Shown in pieces: positions 2,065 to 48,738 of a stretch of DNA of 63,747 nucleotides. The notes beneath the pieces were generated by a model. The model made no database searches. It was not told where the DNA came from and saw nothing but the letters and a program-made list of their open reading frames with translations. The stretch spans positions 1-63,747 of the forward strand of contig JANXRG010000047.1 in NCBI GenBank assembly GCA_025353105.1, in the 5' to 3' direction. Position numbers and translations under genes: made by a program. Positions within the stretch are counted from its first letter, which is position 1. Every line of letters begins with the position of its first letter. Source of the stretch: Verrucomicrobiota bacterium (GTDB lineage: Bacteria; Verrucomicrobiota; Verrucomicrobiia; Chthoniobacterales; SZAS-18).

Positions 2065-2191
2065 GGCTGGGAAATCGGGACGAAGTGGTGATTTTGGAGG
2101 CAGGCTGGCGGTCGCCCACCAAGGTGACATAGCGGTTCGACAGCCAAAGCCACCGGACATTCAATTAATTTATGAGGTTAATTAGTTTTGC

Positions 2192-2223
2192 TAATAAAAC
2201 CAGCGCAACCCGAGGGCGTTGCG
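2192..2223 (-). terminator. Probable intrinsic terminator of the DedA-like gene
   Basis: On the minus strand, about 27 bases past the stop at 2251, a CGCAAC...GTTGCG stem (2204-2223, with a GC-rich inner stem and one bulge) is followed by CTGGTTTTATT. A stem followed by a short T-rich run fits rho-independent termination. Confidence 0.5.
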
Positions 2224-2250
2224 GAACAGATCGAGGGATTTCCGGCCGGT

Positions 2251-2883
2251 TCAGCGCAGGAACCGGAGCGCGACGAACCCTAGGACGATGACAACAAAGA
2301 AGATCGTCACGACCAGAGCCAACTGTTTCTCGATGAACGGCCGGACCTTTTCGCCGAACAAGCGAATCAATCCGGCGACGAGAAAAAACCGGATGGCGCG
2401 CCCGAGCGTGGCCCCCGCGACGAAGAGAGGAAAATTGTAATGCAGGACGCCGGAGGCAATCGTGAAAATCTTGAAGGGAATCGGCGTCAGCGACTTGGCG
2501 GTGAGTGCGAGGAAGCCCCATTTATCGTAAAACGCCTGCACCATGACGAATTTCGCGTCGGGATTCGTCACCCCGAGCATTGGCAGAAGTTTGCGCACGA
2601 AGGGCTCGAATTGCAGGCCAAGGTAGTAACCAAGCATGCCCCCGAGCACCGAATAAAGCGTGCACCAGGCGGCGTAGCGCCACCATTTCGTCGGATTCGC
2701 ATAACAAAGGGCGATGAGCAGCGGATCGGGTGGAATCGGAAAAAAGGACGACTCCGCGAACGACACGGCGTTCATGGTCGTGACTGCGCGCGGAGTGTGG
2801 GCCTGGGCCATGCACCAATCGTAAAGGCGCTTGATCAGACCGGGCTTCTCCTTGCGAGGAGCAACGGGTGCGTCGGTTGGCAT
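2251..2883 (-). CDS. DedA/VTT-family membrane protein (YqaA-like)
   Basis: A 210-residue integral membrane protein with several hydrophobic segments. The motifs FAESSFFPIPPDPLL and GFLALTAKSLTPIPFKIFTI are the twin re-entrant-loop signatures of the DedA/VTT (SNARE-associated) family, whose members flip or transport lipids and affect envelope homeostasis and proton-motive force. It resembles the short YqaA branch. The ATG at 2883 gives a short cytoplasmic N-terminus (MPTDAPVAPRKEKPG) before the first hydrophobic region; the longer open frame upstream is antisense to other sequence and implausible. It is divergent from the ABC transporter at 3064, leaving 180 bp for both promoters. Confidence 0.85.
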   Translation of the reverse strand: MPTDAPVAPRKEKPGLIKRLYDWCMAQAHTPRAVTTMNAVSFAESSFFPIPPDPLLIALCYANPTKWWRYAAWCTLYSVLGGMLGYYLGLQFEPFVRKLLPMLGVTNPDAKFVMVQAFYDKWGFLALTAKSLTPIPFKIFTIASGVLHYNFPLFVAGATLGRAIRFFLVAGLIRLFGEKVRPFIEKQLALVVTIFFVVIVLGFVALRFLR

Positions 2884-3063
2884 TCGGAAAGCGCCGGAAT
2901 CGGGCAGGATGCCCCGCCCCGCAAGCGGAATCTTGCCTGCAAACGAACTCCCCGCCCGTCGGATTTGCGGGCTGCTGACCTTCGAGCGTCGACCGTCGAC
3001 TCCAGGTGCCCCGGGCGTTCCACCTTGTCGCCGCCCGTCCGCCGCGATACAGGGGAAATCAGC

Positions 3064-4857
3064 ATGGCCATCTACCGGCGCGTCTTTGCGTACTTCAAAC
3101 CGTTTTTCTGGCCGACGTTTTGGGGACTGGCGATCACGTTCGTGACGACGGGGTTGAGCCTGCTCGCGCCGTGGCCCTTCAAGATCATCGTGGACGAACT
3201 CCTGCCGGGCGCGGCGCATCATCTCAACGGCGTCTTCACGAATCGAATTGAGCCGGTGCTGGGCGGACCGTTTTCCGTGCAGACCAGCGTGATGATTCTC
3301 GCGGGTGCGCTCGTGCTGCTTCACGGCGCGAGCGGATTGCTCGGCCTTGGTTCGAATTACCTGTTCATCCGGGTCGGACTCCAGGCGCTGCTGCAGTTGC
3401 GCACCGACCTCTACACGACGCTTCACTCGCTCCCGCTGAAGTTTCACGATCTCCGCCGGAGCACGGATTCGAGCTTCCGCGTCGCGTACGACTCGCAGTC
3501 GATGCAGACATTCTACAACCGCGGGTTCACGAATATTTTTGGGTCCGCCGTGATGCTCGTGTCGGCGTTCATCATCATGTGGCGGATGGATTGGAAACTG
3601 ACCGCGACGTCGATGGCCGTGATTCCGTTCGTGATCTGGGCGCTCAAGCATTACGCGAACCGCATCCGGGCCGAGTCCACGACGATCCAGGAAAGGGAAA
3701 GCGCGGTGCTGACCACGGCGCAGGAGGGTCTGAGTTCGATCAAGGTCGTGCAGGCCTTCGGGCGGGAGCAGGAAACGGTCGACGAATTTTACTCGCAGGC
3801 CCGCGAGAGCCTGCTGGCCAATCTGCGGCTGACGGTGACCAACATCGGCAGCTCACTCGTCGTGAGCACGTTGATGGCGCTCGGCACGTCGGTGATGATC
3901 TATGTCGGCACCATGCACGTGCTCGACGGCACACTGACGCTCGGATCGCTCACCGTTTTTGTGAGTTACCTCGGCATGCTCTACGGACCGATTCAGAGCC
4001 TGACTGGCGTCGCGTGGGCGCTCGAGGGCGCGGCGGCGGGTGCGACCCGCTGCTTTGAAATTCTTGATGCCGACAGCGATGTCGAGGACCTGCCGGGCGC
4101 GGAGATCATCCAGACCGCGCGGGGTTGCTTTGAATTTGAGGCGGTCGATTTCGCGTACACCTCCGACCGGATGATCCTCCAGGACATCACGTTCACGGTC
4201 GAGCCGGGCCAGAGCGTGGCGTTTGTCGGCGGTACCGGCGCCGGCAAGAGCACGCTGCTCAGTCTCGCGCCGCGTTTCTACGATCCGACCGCGGGCCGCG
4301 TCCTCCTCGATGGTCGTGATCTCAGGTCGATCACCAAGAAATCGCTGCGCGCGCAGATCAGCATCGTGCTGCAGGACACGCTGCTCTTCTCGACGACGAT
4401 CAAGGAGAACATCGCGTACGGCCGGCCCGACGCGACGGAAGACGAGATCATCGAGGCCGCGCGCCGGGCCCAAGCATACGACTTTGTCATGGCCATGGCG
4501 AACGGGTTCGACAGTCCGGTCGGCGAACGCGGCGGACATTTGAGCGTGGGCCAGCGGCAGCGCATCGGCATCGCCCGCGCTTTTCTCAAGAACTCGCCGA
4601 TCCTGCTCCTCGATGAACCCACGTCCGCCCTCGATCCCGCGACCGAGGCGGCCATCATGGAGACGCTGGCCGATCTGATGAAGGGTCGCACCACTCTGAT
4701 CATCACGCACCGGCTCGCGACGGTGCATCATCTCGATCAGATCGTCGTGCTCGACCACGGCCGGATCGTCGAGGTGGGCCGCGGACCCGAGCTCGTCACG
4801 CGGAACGGCGTCTACGCCAAACTCTATCGGGCCGGAAATTTCGGCGGCAACGCTTAG
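3064..4857 (+). CDS. ABC exporter, fused permease and ATPase (MsbA-like)
   Basis: A 597-residue half-transporter of the lipid or drug exporter type. Residues 1-320 form a six-helix membrane domain. The C-terminal ATPase shows Walker A GGTGAGKST, Q-loop VLQDTLL, signature LSVGQRQRIGIARA, Walker B ILLLDEPTSALD and switch ITHRLAT, so it should be active as a homodimer. A purine-rich AGGGGAAA lies before the ATG at 3064. The glycosyltransferase-like gene follows after 21 bp, so export of a glycolipid or polysaccharide precursor is a reasonable guess, but the substrate is unknown. Confidence 0.93.
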   Translation: MAIYRRVFAYFKPFFWPTFWGLAITFVTTGLSLLAPWPFKIIVDELLPGAAHHLNGVFTNRIEPVLGGPFSVQTSVMILAGALVLLHGASGLLGLGSNYLFIRVGLQALLQLRTDLYTTLHSLPLKFHDLRRSTDSSFRVAYDSQSMQTFYNRGFTNIFGSAVMLVSAFIIMWRMDWKLTATSMAVIPFVIWALKHYANRIRAESTTIQERESAVLTTAQEGLSSIKVVQAFGREQETVDEFYSQARESLLANLRLTVTNIGSSLVVSTLMALGTSVMIYVGTMHVLDGTLTLGSLTVFVSYLGMLYGPIQSLTGVAWALEGAAAGATRCFEILDADSDVEDLPGAEIIQTARGCFEFEAVDFAYTSDRMILQDITFTVEPGQSVAFVGGTGAGKSTLLSLAPRFYDPTAGRVLLDGRDLRSITKKSLRAQISIVLQDTLLFSTTIKENIAYGRPDATEDEIIEAARRAQAYDFVMAMANGFDSPVGERGGHLSVGQRQRIGIARAFLKNSPILLLDEPTSALDPATEAAIMETLADLMKGRTTLIITHRLATVHHLDQIVVLDHGRIVEVGRGPELVTRNGVYAKLYRAGNFGGNA

Positions 4858-44042: not shown

Positions 44043-46175
44043 TCAGTATCCCAACCGGGTACCGACCTGGTAAAACACCAGCGAAGCGACGTACGCAAAG
44101 CCTGTCATGTAGAAAAACAGGAACACGGGCCAGCGCCACGTGTTCGTTTCACGACGCACGACCGCGAGCGTCGCGATGCACTGCATCGAGAACACGAAAT
44201 AAATCATGATGGTCAGACAGACCAGCGGCGTGAAGACCGGGCGTCCATCGGGCCACTTGTCCGCGAGGAGGGCCTTGCGCACGGAGTCGGTGCCGGCCTC
44301 CGCCTTGTCGTCCGCCCCACCGACCGAATAGACGACGGCCACGGTGCTGACGAAGACCTCGCGCGCCGCCTGCGCGCCGATCAACCCGATGCCGATCTTC
44401 CAATTCAAGCCGAGCGGAACCAGCGCAGGCTCGATGAACTTGCCCATCCGCCCCGCGAAACTCTGCGCCAGGTGATCCTCGGGTTTGTCGGTCCCGGTCT
44501 TCGGATAGTACGCGAGCGCCCAGAGGAGAATGCTGAGTCCGAGGATGATCGTGCCGGCCCGGCGGATAAACGCTCTCGCCCGATCGAGCATCCCCTGCAT
44601 CACGGTGCGGACCGACGGCCGGCGGTAGGGCGGGAGCTCAAGCACGAGCGGGAGCGGCCGACCGCGCAGGATCGTGCGCTTGAACAACCAGGCAAACGCG
44701 AACGCGGTCAGCGTCCCGAGCGCGTACATCCCCATCAGCAGCCCGGCCTTCTGCCACGCCGGCACATCGTCCGTGGGAAAGAGCGTCGCTATCATTAGTC
44801 CGTAAACCGGCAGGCGAGCCGAACAGCTCATGAAGGGCGCCACCATGATCGTCGCGAGGCGATCCTTCGGGTTCTCGATCGTGCGCGTGGCCATGATACC
44901 GGGAATGGCGCAGGCGTAGGAACTGAGCAGCGGGATGAACGATTTTCCGTGCAACCCGACGCCGCTCATCACGCGGTCCATGATGAAAGCCGCGCGCGCC
45001 ATGTAGCCACTGTCTTCGAGCAGGCCGATGAACAGGAACAAAATCAAAATCTGCGGCAGGAACACGATGACGCCGCCCACCCCCTTGATCACGCCGTCAG
45101 TGATCAAGCTCTGCAGGTCGCCCGGCGGCATCGCCGTCTTCATCCATTCACCGGCCTGCCCGAAGAGCCATTTGATGCCATCCATCGGATAATTCGCGAG
45201 CGTGAAGATGCTCAAGAACATCAAGCCCATGATCGTCAGAAAAATGAGCCAGCCCCAGACGGGGTGAATGAGGACGGCGTCGGCGCGATCGGTGAAGCTC
45301 GTCTTCGCGTCGGCGGCGTCCGCGCCGCGGCGCAACACGCCCTCGCAAATCTCGCCGATGCGCGTGTAGCGGTCGCCGATGGTGTCCTCCTGCCACGTGG
45401 GCAGCTTTTCGAGCAGCGACGCCCGGGCGGTCCGGAACCGATGCAGCATATGCTCCCAGCCCAGGTCGACCACGAGCCGGTCGGCGCGCTCATCGCTCAG
45501 CAGCAAAATCAGAATCGCGCGAATCTGCGCGAAGCCCAGGTGATGATTCGGCGGCAGCTCGGTGCGGATCATTTCCAGCGATTGATCGACGAGCGGGGGC
45601 ACGGGCACCTTCCAGTCCGGGGACGAATCCGCCGGCCGGCTGAGCGCGATGCGTAACTCGGCGAGACCGGCGCGCGTTTTCGCGCTGCATGGAATCACCG
45701 GCACGCCGATCCGCCGCGAAAGCTCCGCCACGTCGATCGTGTCGCCGTTGTCCTGCGCGAGATCGATCATGTTGAGCGCGATGATTGTCGGCAGACCCAG
45801 CTCGATGACCTGGCTCGCGAGATAAAGGTTTCGCTCGAGGTTCGCGGCGTCGACCACGCATACCACCCGGTCCGGGCGCGGTGTGTCGGGCAGCACGCCG
45901 AGCAGCACATCGCGCGTCACCGCCTCATCCGGCGACTGCGGCGTGAGGCTGTAGGTGCCGGGTAGATCGATCATCCGCGCCTCGCGACCATGCTGCGTCA
46001 TAAAGACGCCGATCTTTTTCTCGACCGTGACGCCCGGGTAGTTCGCAATCTTTTGCCGCAGCCCCGTAAGCGCGTTAAAGAGCGTCGTTTTGCCGCTGTT
46101 CGGATTTCCGATCAACGCGACGGTCGCAAGCTCCGTTTCGATTCCGGGCGCGACATCAATCTGTTCGGTGGGCAT
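44043..46175 (-). CDS. feoB: Ferrous iron transporter FeoB
   Basis: A 710-residue inner-membrane Fe(II) transporter. The N-terminal G domain has VALIGNPNSGKTTLFNALTG (G1), IDLPGTYSLTP (G3) and ALNMIDLAQ (G4). The GDI-like spacer and a membrane domain with Gate motifs follow (SSYACAIPGIMATRTI; CSARLPVYGLMIATLF). All GTPase motifs are intact. It is the last gene of a feoA-feoA-feoB operon, 32 bp after the second feoA. Confidence 0.97.
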   Translation of the reverse strand: MPTEQIDVAPGIETELATVALIGNPNSGKTTLFNALTGLRQKIANYPGVTVEKKIGVFMTQHGREARMIDLPGTYSLTPQSPDEAVTRDVLLGVLPDTPRPDRVVCVVDAANLERNLYLASQVIELGLPTIIALNMIDLAQDNGDTIDVAELSRRIGVPVIPCSAKTRAGLAELRIALSRPADSSPDWKVPVPPLVDQSLEMIRTELPPNHHLGFAQIRAILILLLSDERADRLVVDLGWEHMLHRFRTARASLLEKLPTWQEDTIGDRYTRIGEICEGVLRRGADAADAKTSFTDRADAVLIHPVWGWLIFLTIMGLMFLSIFTLANYPMDGIKWLFGQAGEWMKTAMPPGDLQSLITDGVIKGVGGVIVFLPQILILFLFIGLLEDSGYMARAAFIMDRVMSGVGLHGKSFIPLLSSYACAIPGIMATRTIENPKDRLATIMVAPFMSCSARLPVYGLMIATLFPTDDVPAWQKAGLLMGMYALGTLTAFAFAWLFKRTILRGRPLPLVLELPPYRRPSVRTVMQGMLDRARAFIRRAGTIILGLSILLWALAYYPKTGTDKPEDHLAQSFAGRMGKFIEPALVPLGLNWKIGIGLIGAQAAREVFVSTVAVVYSVGGADDKAEAGTDSVRKALLADKWPDGRPVFTPLVCLTIMIYFVFSMQCIATLAVVRRETNTWRWPVFLFFYMTGFAYVASLVFYQVGTRLGY

Positions 46176-46207
46176 GGCGGAACGAAAATCAACCGGGGAC
46201 GCGGTGG

Positions 46208-46453
46208 CTACACGGGCCGGACTTCGATCTGTTCCGCGTCGAGTTTGCGCAGCGAGAGGCGATAGCCGCGCAGTTCGATTTCCAGCGGATCTCCGAGTGG
46301 CGCCCAGCGGAGGAATTTCACGAGCGTACCGTTGACCAGCCCCATTTCGCGAAGGCGCTTGAGGGGCTCGAGCTCCCCGTGGAAACCAACCACCACCGCC
46401 TGCGAACCGGGCTCAAGATCGGACAGACGGGGGGTCGGAGAATCGTTCGGCAT
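46208..46453 (-). CDS. feoA: FeoA-domain protein (copy 2)
   Basis: An 81-residue SH3-like protein of the FeoA family, which binds and modulates FeoB. LSDLEPGSQAVVVGFHGELE, KRLREMGLVNGT and LRGYRLSLRKLDAEQIEV match the family. It lies directly upstream of feoB and 9 bp after the first feoA. Two separate FeoA proteins may act together or with different partners. Confidence 0.9.
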   Translation of the reverse strand: MPNDSPTPRLSDLEPGSQAVVVGFHGELEPLKRLREMGLVNGTLVKFLRWAPLGDPLEIELRGYRLSLRKLDAEQIEVRPV

Positions 46454-46462
46454 GGAACGGAC

Positions 46463-46720
46463 TTACGAGCGGACCGGCTCGATGAGGATGTCTTTCGCGA
46501 GCTCCTTGCTGAGGGCGAGTCGCGTGCCGCACACCTGACAGACGAGCGCCGCGCCGTGCGAAAGTTTGACGATCTCCGCCGACTCGCAAAATCCCATCTC
46601 GCGAAGGCGCTGGCACTGGGCCGGTTTGGCTTCCAAGGCCAGCAGCCGAAGCCGCTTTCCGAGCGGCGCCGTGAGCAGCGACAGCGGGATCGATTTCGGG
46701 GCGTTTTTGACGAGGTGCAT
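46463..46720 (-). CDS. feoA: FeoA-domain protein (copy 1)
   Basis: An 85-residue FeoA homologue, the first gene of the feo operon. IPLSLLTAPLGKRLRLLALE, CQRLREMGFCESAEIVKL and GTRLALSKELAKDILIEP fit the SH3-like fold. It differs from copy 2 in having five Cys residues, including CQVCG, suggestive of metal or redox sensing (inference). Upstream, a perfect TTGCGAC/GTCGCAA repeat (46729-46735 and 46756-46762) may be an operator. Confidence 0.88.
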   Translation of the reverse strand: MHLVKNAPKSIPLSLLTAPLGKRLRLLALEAKPAQCQRLREMGFCESAEIVKLSHGAALVCQVCGTRLALSKELAKDILIEPVRS

Positions 46721-46859: not shown

Positions 46860-46995
46860 CTCTTATCGAGAGTGGCGGAGGGACTGGCCCGACGATGCCA
46901 CGGCAACCGCCGGATTCTGCAAGGAATTCGGGTCCAGGTGCCAAATCCAGCTTCGGTTGTCGCGCTCTGCGTGGCGACCGGGGAAAAGATGAGGG
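46860..46995 (+). ncRNA. SAM-I (S-box) riboswitch
   Basis: Conserved parts appear in order: P1 5' strand CTCTTATC (46860-46867) followed by GAGAGTGGCGGAGGGA, then CTGGCCCGACGATGCCACGG and CAACCGC, then GGTGCCAAATCC near 46937, a P4 stem (CGGTTGTCGC ... GGCGACCG), and GGAAAAGATGAGGG (46982-46995), whose GATGAGGG pairs with the P1 5' strand. This is the canonical S-adenosylmethionine aptamer. Bound SAM normally turns off the downstream gene, here the threonine-synthase-like gene at 47121. Confidence 0.93.
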
Positions 46996-47047
46996 AACAG
47001 TCTATCGAACGGGCACCCGGACTCCAACCGGACCAGCCTCGACCCGG

Positions 47048-47075
47048 CAGCCTCTTCCTCATCGCGAAGAGGCTG
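47048..47075 (+). terminator. Hairpin in the riboswitch expression platform
   Basis: CAGCCTCTTC (47048-47057) and GAAGAGGCTG (47066-47075) form a perfect 10-bp stem with an 8-base loop, followed by ATTCGTTT. The T run is weak, so it may be a terminator or part of a translation switch; a second stem GGCAGG/CCTGCC lies just before the start codon. Confidence 0.5.
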
Positions 47076-47120
47076 ATTCGTTTCAGCCCTCGGCAGGAGT
47101 CGCCCAACCGAACCCTGCCC

Positions 47121-48395
47121 ATGAGCCAGCCCCGAAATCCCTACTTCACGAGCCTGCGCTGCCGCGAATGCGGACGCGACTACCCCAAGGAGGCCGTCCA
47201 CGTCTGCGAGTATGACTTCGGTCCGCTCGAGGCCGCGTACGATTACGATGCGATTCGCACCGTGCTGACGCGGCACGAAATCGAGGCGCGCCCGCCCACG
47301 ATGTGGCGTTACCGGGAGCTTTTGCCGCTCGACGGCGAACCGACCGTGGGATTGCAAACCGGCTTCACGCCGCTCGTGCCCGCGCCGCGCCTCGCGCGCC
47401 GACTTGGGTTGACCGGCGATTTGTTCATCAAGAATGACGCGGTCAATTTTCCGACATTATCCTTCAAGGATCGCGTGGTCGCCGTGGCGCTCTCGCGCGC
47501 CAAGGAACTCGGACTCGAGACGGTGGCCTGCGCGAGCACAGGCAATCTGGCGAACTCCGTGGCCGCCAACGCCGCGGCGTCGGGACTCAACTGCCTTGTG
47601 TTCATTCCGCAGGATCTCGAGCGCGGCAAGGTGGTCGGCTCGCTGATTTTCGGCGCGCGGGTCATCGGCATTCGCGGCTCGTACGACATTGTGAACCGTC
47701 TCTGCTCGGAGATCGCGGGCAAGTACGGGTGGGGTTTCGTGAACGTGAATCTGCGACCCTACTACGCCGAGGGATCAAAGACCGTCGGCTACGAAATCTG
47801 CGAACAACTTGGCTGGCGCGCGCCGCAGCACACCGTGATCTGCATGGCGAGCGGCTCGCTCCTGACCAAGGTCCACAAGGCCTACTCGGAGTTCGCGAAG
47901 CTCGGATTGATCACGCCCGGCACCGGATCCATCCACGGCGCGCAGGCCGCGGGCTGCGGTCCCATCGTCGATGCCATGAAACTGGGGCGCGAGACCGTAA
48001 AGCCGGTCGCCAAGCCGAATACGATTGTGAAATCGCTCGCGATCGGGACACCGGCGGACGGCTACTATGCGATCCGCGTGATGAAGGAGACCGGCGGTAC
48101 GGCCGAGGCCGCGACCGATCCGGAAGCGATCGCGGGTATCGAACTGCTCGCCGAGACGACCGGAATTTTTGCCGAGACCGCGGGTGGCGTGACGGTTGCG
48201 TGCGCGAAGAAGTTGATCGCGTCCGGCGCGATTCCGCGCGACGAGAGCGTCGTGCTCTGCATTACGGGCAACGGCCTGAAGACCATTGAAGCCGTGACGG
48301 ACGCCGTGGGCGAACCCGAGATCATCGGCGGCAGTCTTCGCGAATTCGACGAGCAGATTCTCGCCCGCGGCACCGGCGCCGCGGCCACCGTCTAG
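47121..48395 (+). CDS. thrC: Threonine-synthase-family PLP enzyme, SAM-riboswitch controlled
   Basis: A 424-residue protein of the fold-type II PLP family. Residues C14, C17 and C29 form a zinc-ribbon-like N-terminus (LRCRECGRDYPKE, HVCEYDFGPLE) in which the fourth Cys seen in many relatives is Asp32. The PLP Lys is K116 in PTLSFKDRVV, and ACASTGNLANSVAANAAASG binds the cofactor phosphate. Classical threonine synthase turns O-phosphohomoserine into threonine. Here a SAM-I riboswitch precedes the gene and a MoaD/ThiS-like gene follows, so homocysteine formation from O-phosphohomoserine is an alternative (inference). The start ATG at 47121 lacks a clear ribosome binding site. The gene symbol reflects the family, not a proven reaction. 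Confidence 0.88.
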   Translation: MSQPRNPYFTSLRCRECGRDYPKEAVHVCEYDFGPLEAAYDYDAIRTVLTRHEIEARPPTMWRYRELLPLDGEPTVGLQTGFTPLVPAPRLARRLGLTGDLFIKNDAVNFPTLSFKDRVVAVALSRAKELGLETVACASTGNLANSVAANAAASGLNCLVFIPQDLERGKVVGSLIFGARVIGIRGSYDIVNRLCSEIAGKYGWGFVNVNLRPYYAEGSKTVGYEICEQLGWRAPQHTVICMASGSLLTKVHKAYSEFAKLGLITPGTGSIHGAQAAGCGPIVDAMKLGRETVKPVAKPNTIVKSLAIGTPADGYYAIRVMKETGGTAEAATDPEAIAGIELLAETTGIFAETAGGVTVACAKKLIASGAIPRDESVVLCITGNGLKTIEAVTDAVGEPEIIGGSLREFDEQILARGTGAAATV

Positions 48396-48396
48396 T

Positions 48397-48462
48397 TCTT
48401 CATTCACCCATCTGGCCCTCAGCCCTGAACGCTTCACTCATTACTCCTAACTCATAACCCAA
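48397..48462. repeat. Heptad repeats between thrC-like and moaD-like genes
   Basis: The spacer can be read as nine successive 7-mers, loosest at the left, with TTCACTC, ATTACTC, CTAACTC and ATAACCC just before the ATG at 48463. Each keeps the ACTC- or AACC-type pattern. This is the same 7-bp periodicity as upstream of dnaG and lptF, with a different unit. Confidence 0.7.
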
Positions 48463-48738
48463 ATGTCCACCAGCATCCGAATTCCCACTCCGCTTCGAAA
48501 ACTTACCAATGGCGCTGAAATCGTGCAGGCGGACGGCGCAAACGTCGGCGAATTGCTGACCTCGCTCGACGCGAAATTTCCCGGTCTGCGCGAACGCATT
48601 TGCGACGAGGCCGGGCAGGTCCGTCGTTTTGTGAACGTCTATCTCAACGACGAGGACATCCGTTTTCTCAATGAGCAGGCAACCGCGGTCAAGACGGGCG
48701 ACGAGATCAGCATCGTTCCGGCGATCGCCGGCGGATAG
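48463..48738 (+). CDS. MoaD/ThiS-family sulfur carrier
   Basis: A 91-residue beta-grasp protein. IRIPTPLRKLTNG, VGELLTSLDAKFPGLRERI and VKTGDEISIVPAIAGG follow the MoaD/ThiS plan, and the C-terminus is exactly Gly-Gly, the site that an E1-like enzyme adenylates and converts to a thiocarboxylate. Typical uses are molybdopterin, thiamine, cysteine (CysO) or homocysteine synthesis. It is 67 bp downstream of the SAM-controlled thrC-like gene, so its sulfur probably goes to that pathway rather than to molybdopterin; no moa genes are near. Confidence 0.88.
   Translation: MSTSIRIPTPLRKLTNGAEIVQADGANVGELLTSLDAKFPGLRERICDEAGQVRRFVNVYLNDEDIRFLNEQATAVKTGDEISIVPAIAGG

What the first reader, a model, noticed from the sequence alone, without database searches (positions are those of the whole stretch)
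46860..48738. SAM riboswitch, threonine-synthase-like enzyme and MoaD-like carrier: a possible homocysteine pathway
A canonical SAM-I aptamer precedes a threonine-synthase-family gene, which would then be switched off when SAM is plentiful. That makes little sense for threonine, but much for methionine. The next gene is a beta-grasp carrier ending in Gly-Gly, able to hold sulfur as a thiocarboxylate. The parallel is CysM-CysO, in which a PLP enzyme takes sulfur from such a carrier, and HcyS in homocysteine synthesis. The hypothesis is that this enzyme replaces the phosphate of O-phosphohomoserine with sulfur from the carrier, a bacterial phosphohomoserine-dependent homocysteine synthase. The Asp32 in place of a zinc-ribbon Cys may mark the subfamily.
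Basis: partly seen in the sequence, partly recalled or inferred. Interest (0 to 1): 0.85.

Follow-up and report, generated by a model that had tools for sequence, protein, structure and literature searches.

The report
Carrier-fed homocysteine synthase under SAM riboswitch
A bacterium carries a threonine-synthase look-alike that, with a small sulfur-carrier protein and a riboswitch that senses the methionine product SAM, most likely makes homocysteine for methionine; a matching gene set was described in Streptomyces in 2024, and relatives with this unit seem to use it in place of the textbook route.

Summary
In detail: a SAM-I riboswitch (46860-46995), a threonine-synthase-family gene (47121-48395) and a CysO/SAMP1-like carrier ending in Gly-Gly (48463-48738). 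The idea is sound but not new: it matches the MetM/MetO route (Hasebe et al. 2024, Streptomyces), seen only through passages of a citing paper. The genome has a separate ordinary ThrC, a MoeZ-type E1, one SAM-I, no MetX, no MetY-scoring enzyme and no other carrier found but ThiS. The carrier follows the gene in 16 of 16 close orthologues and 78 of 80 named loci (the other two end at contig edges), but in 0 of 31 other ThrC-family loci. SAM-I is found at 12 of 16 and 50 of 80, against 0 of 51 control loci. MetX is absent from 16 of 16 genomes with the unit and present in 18 of 21 without. The enzyme falls in a 100/100 clade with actinobacterial and cyanobacterial members. Added here: spread over many phyla, three clade-wide residue changes at the presumed ThrC substrate pocket, and no Mec/HcyD-type JAB match in 15 of 16 of these genomes, so product release may differ from known carrier systems. 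No activity was tested.

The parts
46860..46995 (+). SAM-I (S-box) riboswitch aptamer
   Evidence: RF00162, 73.9 bits, E 2e-15; only one in the genome; upstream of the enzyme gene in 12 of 17 phylum loci and 50 of 80 named-genome loci
47048..47075 (+). terminator-like hairpin, candidate expression platform of the riboswitch
   Evidence: 10-bp stem then ATTCGTTT; stem also in the predicted folds; not above chance in the scan (1 found, 2.1 expected)
47121..48395 (+). MetM-type homocysteine synthase (PLP enzyme of the threonine-synthase family; 424 aa; PLP lysine K116 by alignment to K61 of T. thermophilus ThrC)
48463..48738 (+). MetO-type beta-grasp sulfur carrier (CysO/SAMP1-like, 91 aa, C-terminal Gly-Gly)
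   Evidence: follows the enzyme gene in 16 of 16 orthologous loci

Best explanation
This is a Verrucomicrobiota member of the MetM/MetO route to homocysteine. Inferred steps: the MoeZ-type E1 (C26:931-2235) adenylates the carrier's C-terminal glycine and its rhodanese domain, or sulfide, converts it to a thiocarboxylate; the PLP enzyme removes phosphate from O-phosphohomoserine to give a vinylglycine-type intermediate; the carrier's sulfur (or sulfide freed from it) adds at C-gamma to give homocysteine, which is then methylated to methionine. SAM bound to the riboswitch shuts the unit off, and the separate ThrC (C82) makes threonine. Shown here: gene content, linkage, phylogeny and the missing MetX. 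Not shown: the chemistry, the sulfur donor and the regulation.
For: SAM-I, enzyme and carrier in one unit. A further ThrC-family gene in 16 of 16 MetM genomes. MetX above 250 bits in 0 of 16 MetM genomes versus 18 of 21 MetM-less genomes (Fisher p 9e-8; by family 0 of 9 vs 6 of 8, p 0.002). Cys/Met PLP family (PF01053, E<=1e-40) in 1 of 16 versus 19 of 21. Carrier in 16 of 16 and 78 of 80 MetM loci, 0 of 31 other ThrC-family loci. SAM-I in 12 of 16 and 50 of 80 MetM loci, 0 of 51 control loci. MoeZ-like and/or CysM-like genes near MetM in 31 of 80 loci, both in 22. Large E1 in 15 of 16 MetM genomes. Window protein in a 44-row clade at 100/100 with Nonomuraea (which also has SAM-I and carrier) and two cyanobacteria. 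Passages of PMC12172450 cite MetM of Streptomyces as a homocysteine synthase acting on O-phosphohomoserine, S. albulus metM as having an upstream SAM riboswitch, and metO as a sulfur-carrier-like gene.
Against: The same passages report that the Microcystis relative (51.6% identical to S. albulus MetM) acts in vitro as threonine synthase and threonine deaminase, with no rise of methionine in cells; an unidentified product near methionine was seen. This genome, unlike its 15 MetM relatives, keeps two cystathionine-synthase/lyase-like enzymes (L002 beside a CBS gene, L003). Three orthologous loci (L040, L043, L041) show no SAM-I, and 30 of 80 named loci show none. One MetM genome, G319, shows no E1. 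No Mec/HcyD-type JAB to release carrier-bound product. The enzyme scores above the thrC cut-off. MetA, the DUF39 route and MoaE were not searched.
Confidence: 0.84

Rival explanations
1. It is a second threonine synthase (or threonine synthase/deaminase), co-regulated with methionine because both branches share O-phosphohomoserine; the carrier is a bystander.
For: Scores above the TIGR00260 thrC cut-off; nearest folds are threonine synthases; the Microcystis relative has threonine synthase and deaminase activity in vitro.
Against: A further ThrC is present in 16 of 16 MetM genomes; carrier linkage in all but two contig-edge cases of 96, none in 31 other ThrC-family loci; 19 positions (26 with gaps) are fixed differently in 44 MetM and 18 ThrC rows at the 95% level, among them T88L, S155N, R160Y in T. 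thermophilus numbering.
Confidence: 0.08
2. The carrier mainly serves another acceptor (the tandem CysM-like enzymes on C26 for cysteine, or molybdopterin) and is only co-regulated with the enzyme; homocysteine is made with free sulfide.
For: CysO-like carrier; the E1 follows two CysM-like genes on one strand with no carrier there; the only other carrier found is ThiS. PMC12172450 used Na2S to mimic MetM activity.
Against: The carrier follows MetM in 16 of 16 phylum loci, in this window downstream of the SAM switch, and no Verrucomicrobiota-titled locus showed a CysM-like gene in the flank held. CysM beside the E1 was seen only in G000 among the 15 E1 loci of MetM genomes. Sharing with CysM is possible and does not exclude the main reading. 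MoaE was not searched.
Confidence: 0.12
3. Homocysteine in this genome comes from a plant-like O-phosphohomoserine-dependent cystathionine synthase (L002 or L003) plus a lyase, and the window unit is redundant.
For: Two PF01053 enzymes, best model cystathionine gamma-synthase though below its cut-off (484 and 430 bits, cut-off 513).
Against: L002 lies by a cystathionine beta-synthase-like gene (L012), the arrangement of reverse transsulfuration from homocysteine to cysteine (recalled); 15 of 15 other MetM genomes have no PF01053 match at E<=1e-40.
Confidence: 0.05

Closest known systems
MetM/MetO of Streptomyces albulus (Hasebe, Adachi, Maruyama, Hamano 2024, Appl Environ Microbiol 90:e01247-24; not held, seen only as cited in passages of PMC12172450)
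   Same: Threonine-synthase-like homocysteine synthase, a sulfur-carrier-like gene metO, upstream SAM riboswitch on metM; the three-part arrangement was found here in the actinobacterium Nonomuraea, enzyme 52% identical
   Different: Phylum; Asp32 instead of the ribbon Cys; no assay for this member. The S. albulus sequences were not compared, and the passages do not say where metO lies
CysM-CysO-Mec+ cysteine synthesis of mycobacteria (recalled)
   Same: Beta-grasp carrier closest to CysO; PLP enzyme of the same broad fold; MoeZ-type E1 with rhodanese
   Different: Enzyme is of the threonine-synthase kind, not CysM; no Mec+/JAB found in this genome; SAM-I upstream
HcyS-HcyD-HcyF-MetY of Wolinella succinogenes (Krishnamoorthy and Begley 2011, recalled; title seen in the reference list of PMC5764234)
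   Same: Carrier-dependent homocysteine synthesis
   Different: There the PLP enzyme is MetY with O-acetylhomoserine, and a JAB protease matures the carrier and frees the product (recalled); here no MetY, MetX or JAB found, and the carrier already ends in Gly-Gly
Ordinary bacterial threonine synthase ThrC (1uim, 2zsj, 6cgq)
   Same: Fold and PLP lysine; O-phosphohomoserine the likely shared substrate
   Different: Separate clade; N-terminal ribbon-like segment; altered pocket residues; carrier neighbour

Membership tests
MetM/MetO homocysteine route | threonine-synthase homologue in the same clade as MetM-type genes | tested here: met
   44-row clade 100/100 with Nonomuraea and two cyanobacterial members; S. 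albulus MetM itself not on the tree
MetM/MetO homocysteine route | beta-grasp carrier gene (here adjacent) | tested here: met
   48463-48738; 16 of 16 orthologous loci, 78 of 80 named loci
MetM/MetO homocysteine route | upstream SAM riboswitch | tested here: met
   not universal in the clade (12 of 16, 50 of 80), and the Microcystis gene lacks it
MetM/MetO homocysteine route | no acyl-homoserine route needed | tested here: inconclusive
   MetX absent, no MetY-scoring enzyme; MetA not searched; two PF01053 enzymes present
MetM/MetO homocysteine route | makes homocysteine from O-phosphohomoserine with carrier sulfur | not testable with these tools
   needs enzyme assay
CysM-CysO-Mec+ system | JAB (Mec+) protease | tested here: not met
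   only PF14464 match in G000 is RadC; PF01398 not searched
CysM-CysO-Mec+ system | PLP enzyme of the CysM family next to the carrier | tested here: not met
   window enzyme is threonine-synthase type; CysM-like genes are on C26
HcyS/HcyD/MetY system | MetY-type PLP enzyme with O-acetylhomoserine from MetX | tested here: not met
ordinary threonine synthase | pocket residues T88, S155, R160 (1uim numbering counted by eye; their role in substrate binding is recalled) | tested here: not met
   L143, N210, Y215 in P0002; T, S, R in 18 of 18 ThrC rows
MoaD (molybdopterin) carrier | pairs with MoaE | not tested

The most novel reading that the evidence does not exclude
In these bacteria MetM releases homocysteine from its carrier without any JAB isopeptidase: either the thioester is hydrolysed in the MetM active site or the thiocarboxylate is used as a sulfide donor. 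JAB in this family would then be a maturation protease for carriers with extra residues after Gly-Gly, and one E1-carrier pair would feed both MetM and CysM-type enzymes. This would be a mechanistic variant of carrier-dependent amino acid synthesis and a major bacterial use of O-phosphohomoserine for methionine.
Probability: 0.4. Interest if true: 0.6.

Novelty: new member of a known kind. Interest (0 to 1): 0.45.

Why it matters
Current family models name this gene threonine synthase, which would leave such an organism looking unable to make methionine. The comparison shows the unit in genomes titled with many phyla and, in the one phylum where it was tested, in genomes without MetX, including two of 0.9 Mb. 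It would close a gap in predicted methionine synthesis. It also suggests that the carrier system can run without the JAB protease that the two best known carrier-dependent systems use (recalled), which is directly testable.

Tried and rejected
Ordinary threonine synthase as the whole story: rejected because a further ThrC is present in all 16 genomes and the clade is distinct. MetX in the window genome: the best match (L031, 106 bits) passes the cut-off of PRK06489, a different hydrolase (515 bits, cut-off 305). JAB in the window genome: RadC. Asp32 as functional marker: it splits by lineage. G315's 38%-identical protein (L049) was listed as a match but has no carrier and no SAM-I and falls outside the clade; it is counted with the MetM-less genomes. 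Promoter scan found nothing. Literature: ten searches; no listing held the primary MetM paper; 'ThiS' matched the word 'this', and one search listed 15 of 46, mostly off topic. The structure model is fair (pLDDT 82.8) but coordinates are not returned, so the pocket was compared by alignment only.

Limits of the counts. The MetM-less genomes are the 20 that one search listed first plus G315, eight of them one genus (f8 g10); hence the family-level counts. The 51 control sources include one place three times (L015, L029, L093), and the 31 loci include it twice. The JAB-tail association is confounded by lineage: in the 80 loci those titled Verrucomicrobiota (with L150 and L162, titled only 'bacterium') have bare Gly-Gly wherever the end could be read; outside them it is 13 of 27 against 1 of 14 (p 0.014), with three similar Nitrospira-type loci among the 13. 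Flanks held differ in length. The residue comparison dropped 7 of 69 tree rows (L016, L049, L109, L110, L112, L113, L117).

Full report
Observation. cmscan finds one SAM-I aptamer at 46860-46995 (73.9 bits), the only one in the genome. 125 bases later starts a 424-residue ORF (47121-48395) that scores above the cut-off for thrC (265 bits, cut-off 167.1), followed after 67 bases by a 91-residue ThiS-family protein ending in Gly-Gly (48463-48738). Among solved chains the carrier is closer to 3dwg_C (E 9.5e-22; recalled as CysO) than to the best chain named molybdopterin converting factor (2m19_A, 1.2e-10).

Genome content. The window genome (G000, 3.72 Mb, 121 contigs, 97.6% complete) has 11 PALP-family matches. 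Besides the window enzyme they include an ordinary ThrC (L015 on C82, 321 bits for thrC), a PRK08197-type relative (L016), a CysK (L013), two tandem CysM-like genes (L014, L018 on C26) and a CBS-like gene (L012). The cystathionine-family search gives two full-length enzymes, L002 beside the CBS-like gene and L003; in the 25 models shown for each (of 43 and 47) neither reaches a cut-off. MetX: best match 106 bits over part of the model, a PRK06489 hydrolase. Carriers by PF02597: only the window's and one on C89 read by eye as ThiS beside a ThiH-like gene. E1 enzymes: a ThiF+rhodanese protein of MoeZ type directly downstream of the CysM-like pair on C26, and one on C89 read by eye as TcdA-like.

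Comparison within the phylum. P0002 matches 17 of 387 genomes at E<=1e-75; 16 (the window's included) are 61-100% identical, one (G315) is 38% and is not an orthologue. In all 16 loci the carrier gene follows the enzyme gene. SAM-I is found by Rfam in 12 of the 16; a thirteenth (L035) shows the 3' part of an aptamer cut by the contig end (21.4 bits); L040, L043 (both 0.9 Mb genomes) and L041 show none. All 16 genomes have at least one further ThrC-family match over the cut-off. I compared these 16 with 21 MetM-less genomes (the 20 listed first, plus G315): MetX above 250 bits in 0 of 16 versus 18 of 21, or 0 of 9 versus 6 of 8 families; PF01053 at E<=1e-40 in 1 of 16 (G000 itself) versus 19 of 21 (tests). 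Three MetM-less genomes (G013, G166, G277) also lack MetX at that score. A large E1 is present in 15 of 16 MetM genomes (not G319), including both 0.9 Mb genomes; a CysM-like gene beside it was seen only in G000 among these 15.

Comparison across bacteria. A scan of named genomes with the 16-row alignment kept the best 80 of at least 587 relatives, 58-74% identical, with titles from Verrucomicrobiota, Kiritimatiellota, Mariprofundus, Thermodesulfobacteriota, Myxococcota, Nitrospirota, Nitrospinota, Omnitrophota, Elusimicrobiota, Margulisiibacteriota, Planctomycetota (Gemmata), Cyanobacteriota and others; most are metagenome-assembled, so single titles may be wrong. A carrier is encoded downstream (tblastn E<=1e-4) in 78 of 80 (73 within 1 kb, 5 within 1.7 kb); the two without end at or near the contig edge. 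A covariance model built from the 12 aptamers finds SAM-I in 50 of 80, 47 of them 57-183 bases upstream of the MetM match and the others 342, 999 and 2237. Controls: no SAM-I in 51 sources holding ordinary ThrC, cystathionine-family and MetX genes; no carrier in 31 other ThrC-family loci. In 31 of 80 loci MoeZ-like and/or CysM-like genes lie within the flank, both in 22; none of these 31 is titled Verrucomicrobiota. An actinobacterial record (Nonomuraea, labelled plasmid I but 11.85 Mb) has SAM-I (68.7 bits), an enzyme 52% identical and a carrier 49% identical, in that order.

Phylogeny and active site. In a tree of 69 proteins, 44 MetM-type rows including the window, Nonomuraea and two cyanobacteria form one group at 100/100, apart from ordinary ThrC; L049 and L016 fall outside it on long branches whose place is unsure. 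Comparing these 44 with 18 ordinary ThrC rows, the PLP lysine and the SFKDR and CASTGN motifs are shared, but 19 positions (26 with gaps) are fixed differently at the 95% level. Mapped on 1uim by the alignment (chain numbers counted by eye), T88 is L143 (44 of 44), S155 is N210 (43 of 44) and R160 is Y215 (44 of 44); N188 is S244 in the window protein but that column is not fixed across the clade. I recall that these residues line the substrate-phosphate site of T. thermophilus ThrC; a literature search did not confirm it. So if O-phosphohomoserine is the substrate, it is held differently. The AlphaFold model (pLDDT 82.8) is nearest to threonine synthases.

Carrier tails and JAB. Of 80 loci, 48 carriers end in Gly-Gly, 21 have 1-22 further residues, 6 have a longer C-terminal extension (2 of 2 tested are NIL domains), 5 could not be read. 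A JAB gene similar to those of G121 and G315 lies in the flank in 13 of the 27 extended cases and 1 of the 48 Gly-Gly cases (p 2e-6, or 0.014 outside Verrucomicrobiota). In the phylum set only G121 among 16 MetM genomes has a strong PF14464 match, and only its carrier (L048) has residues after Gly-Gly; but that JAB gene sits beside a second carrier fused to an E1, so it may serve that one. The weak matches in G000, G310 and G366 are RadC. This suggests that JAB matures carriers rather than being needed to free homocysteine. It is an association, not a proof.

Prior work. The passages of PMC12172450 that I read cite Hasebe et al. 2024 for MetM, a homocysteine synthase of Streptomyces acting on O-phosphohomoserine, with a SAM riboswitch upstream of S. 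albulus metM; they call a Microcystis carrier gene next to thrC similar to S. albulus metO and report MetM homologues in cyanobacteria. The primary paper is not held; its title and reference come from that citation. The same passages report that the Microcystis relative makes threonine and 2-oxobutyrate in vitro, gives an unidentified product near methionine, and did not raise methionine in cells; this is the main result against assuming that every member is a homocysteine synthase. Whether Verrucomicrobiota are mentioned in the primary paper I cannot tell. A search on Verrucomicrobiota with homocysteine, methionine biosynthesis and MetX showed none on this unit in the 15 listed of 46, judged by title and start of abstract.

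Judgement. The chemistry, the true sulfur donor and the riboswitch's action remain untested.

Noticed in passing
L120:1459-1903 and 2179-3334 (G121); L119:1922-3359 (G315): A CysO-like carrier fused to the N-terminus of a MoeZ-type E1 in one reading frame, with a JAB gene just upstream (and a CysM-like gene in G315): a carrier with an internal Gly-Gly.
   Followed up: partly
L173:8167-8679, L177:7282-7794; similar long tails in L189, L194, L200, L201: Carrier downstream of MetM fused to a C-terminal NIL domain (PF09383, 51-52 bits in the two tested).
   Followed up: partly
G000 C26 (L025:931-4305, - strand): Two tandem CysM-like genes (54% identical to each other) followed by a MoeZ-type E1 but no carrier gene; the window carrier is the only candidate partner found besides ThiS.
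   Followed up: partly
G013, G166, G277: Relatives of the same order with neither the MetM unit nor MetX above 250 bits, though they keep cystathionine-family enzymes; their homocysteine source is unclear.
   Followed up: no
L040, L043 (0.9 Mb genomes G057, G036): Strongly reduced genomes keep MetM, carrier and one E1 but show no SAM-I aptamer at the unit; they may be host-associated (inference from size).
   Followed up: no
window 44043-46720, - strand: ORFs that read like FeoB with two FeoA-like small proteins, divergent from the SAM-I unit (read by eye, no family search).
   Followed up: no
NZ_LT559118.1: An 11.85 Mb Nonomuraea record filed as a plasmid; by size it looks like a chromosome.
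   Followed up: no
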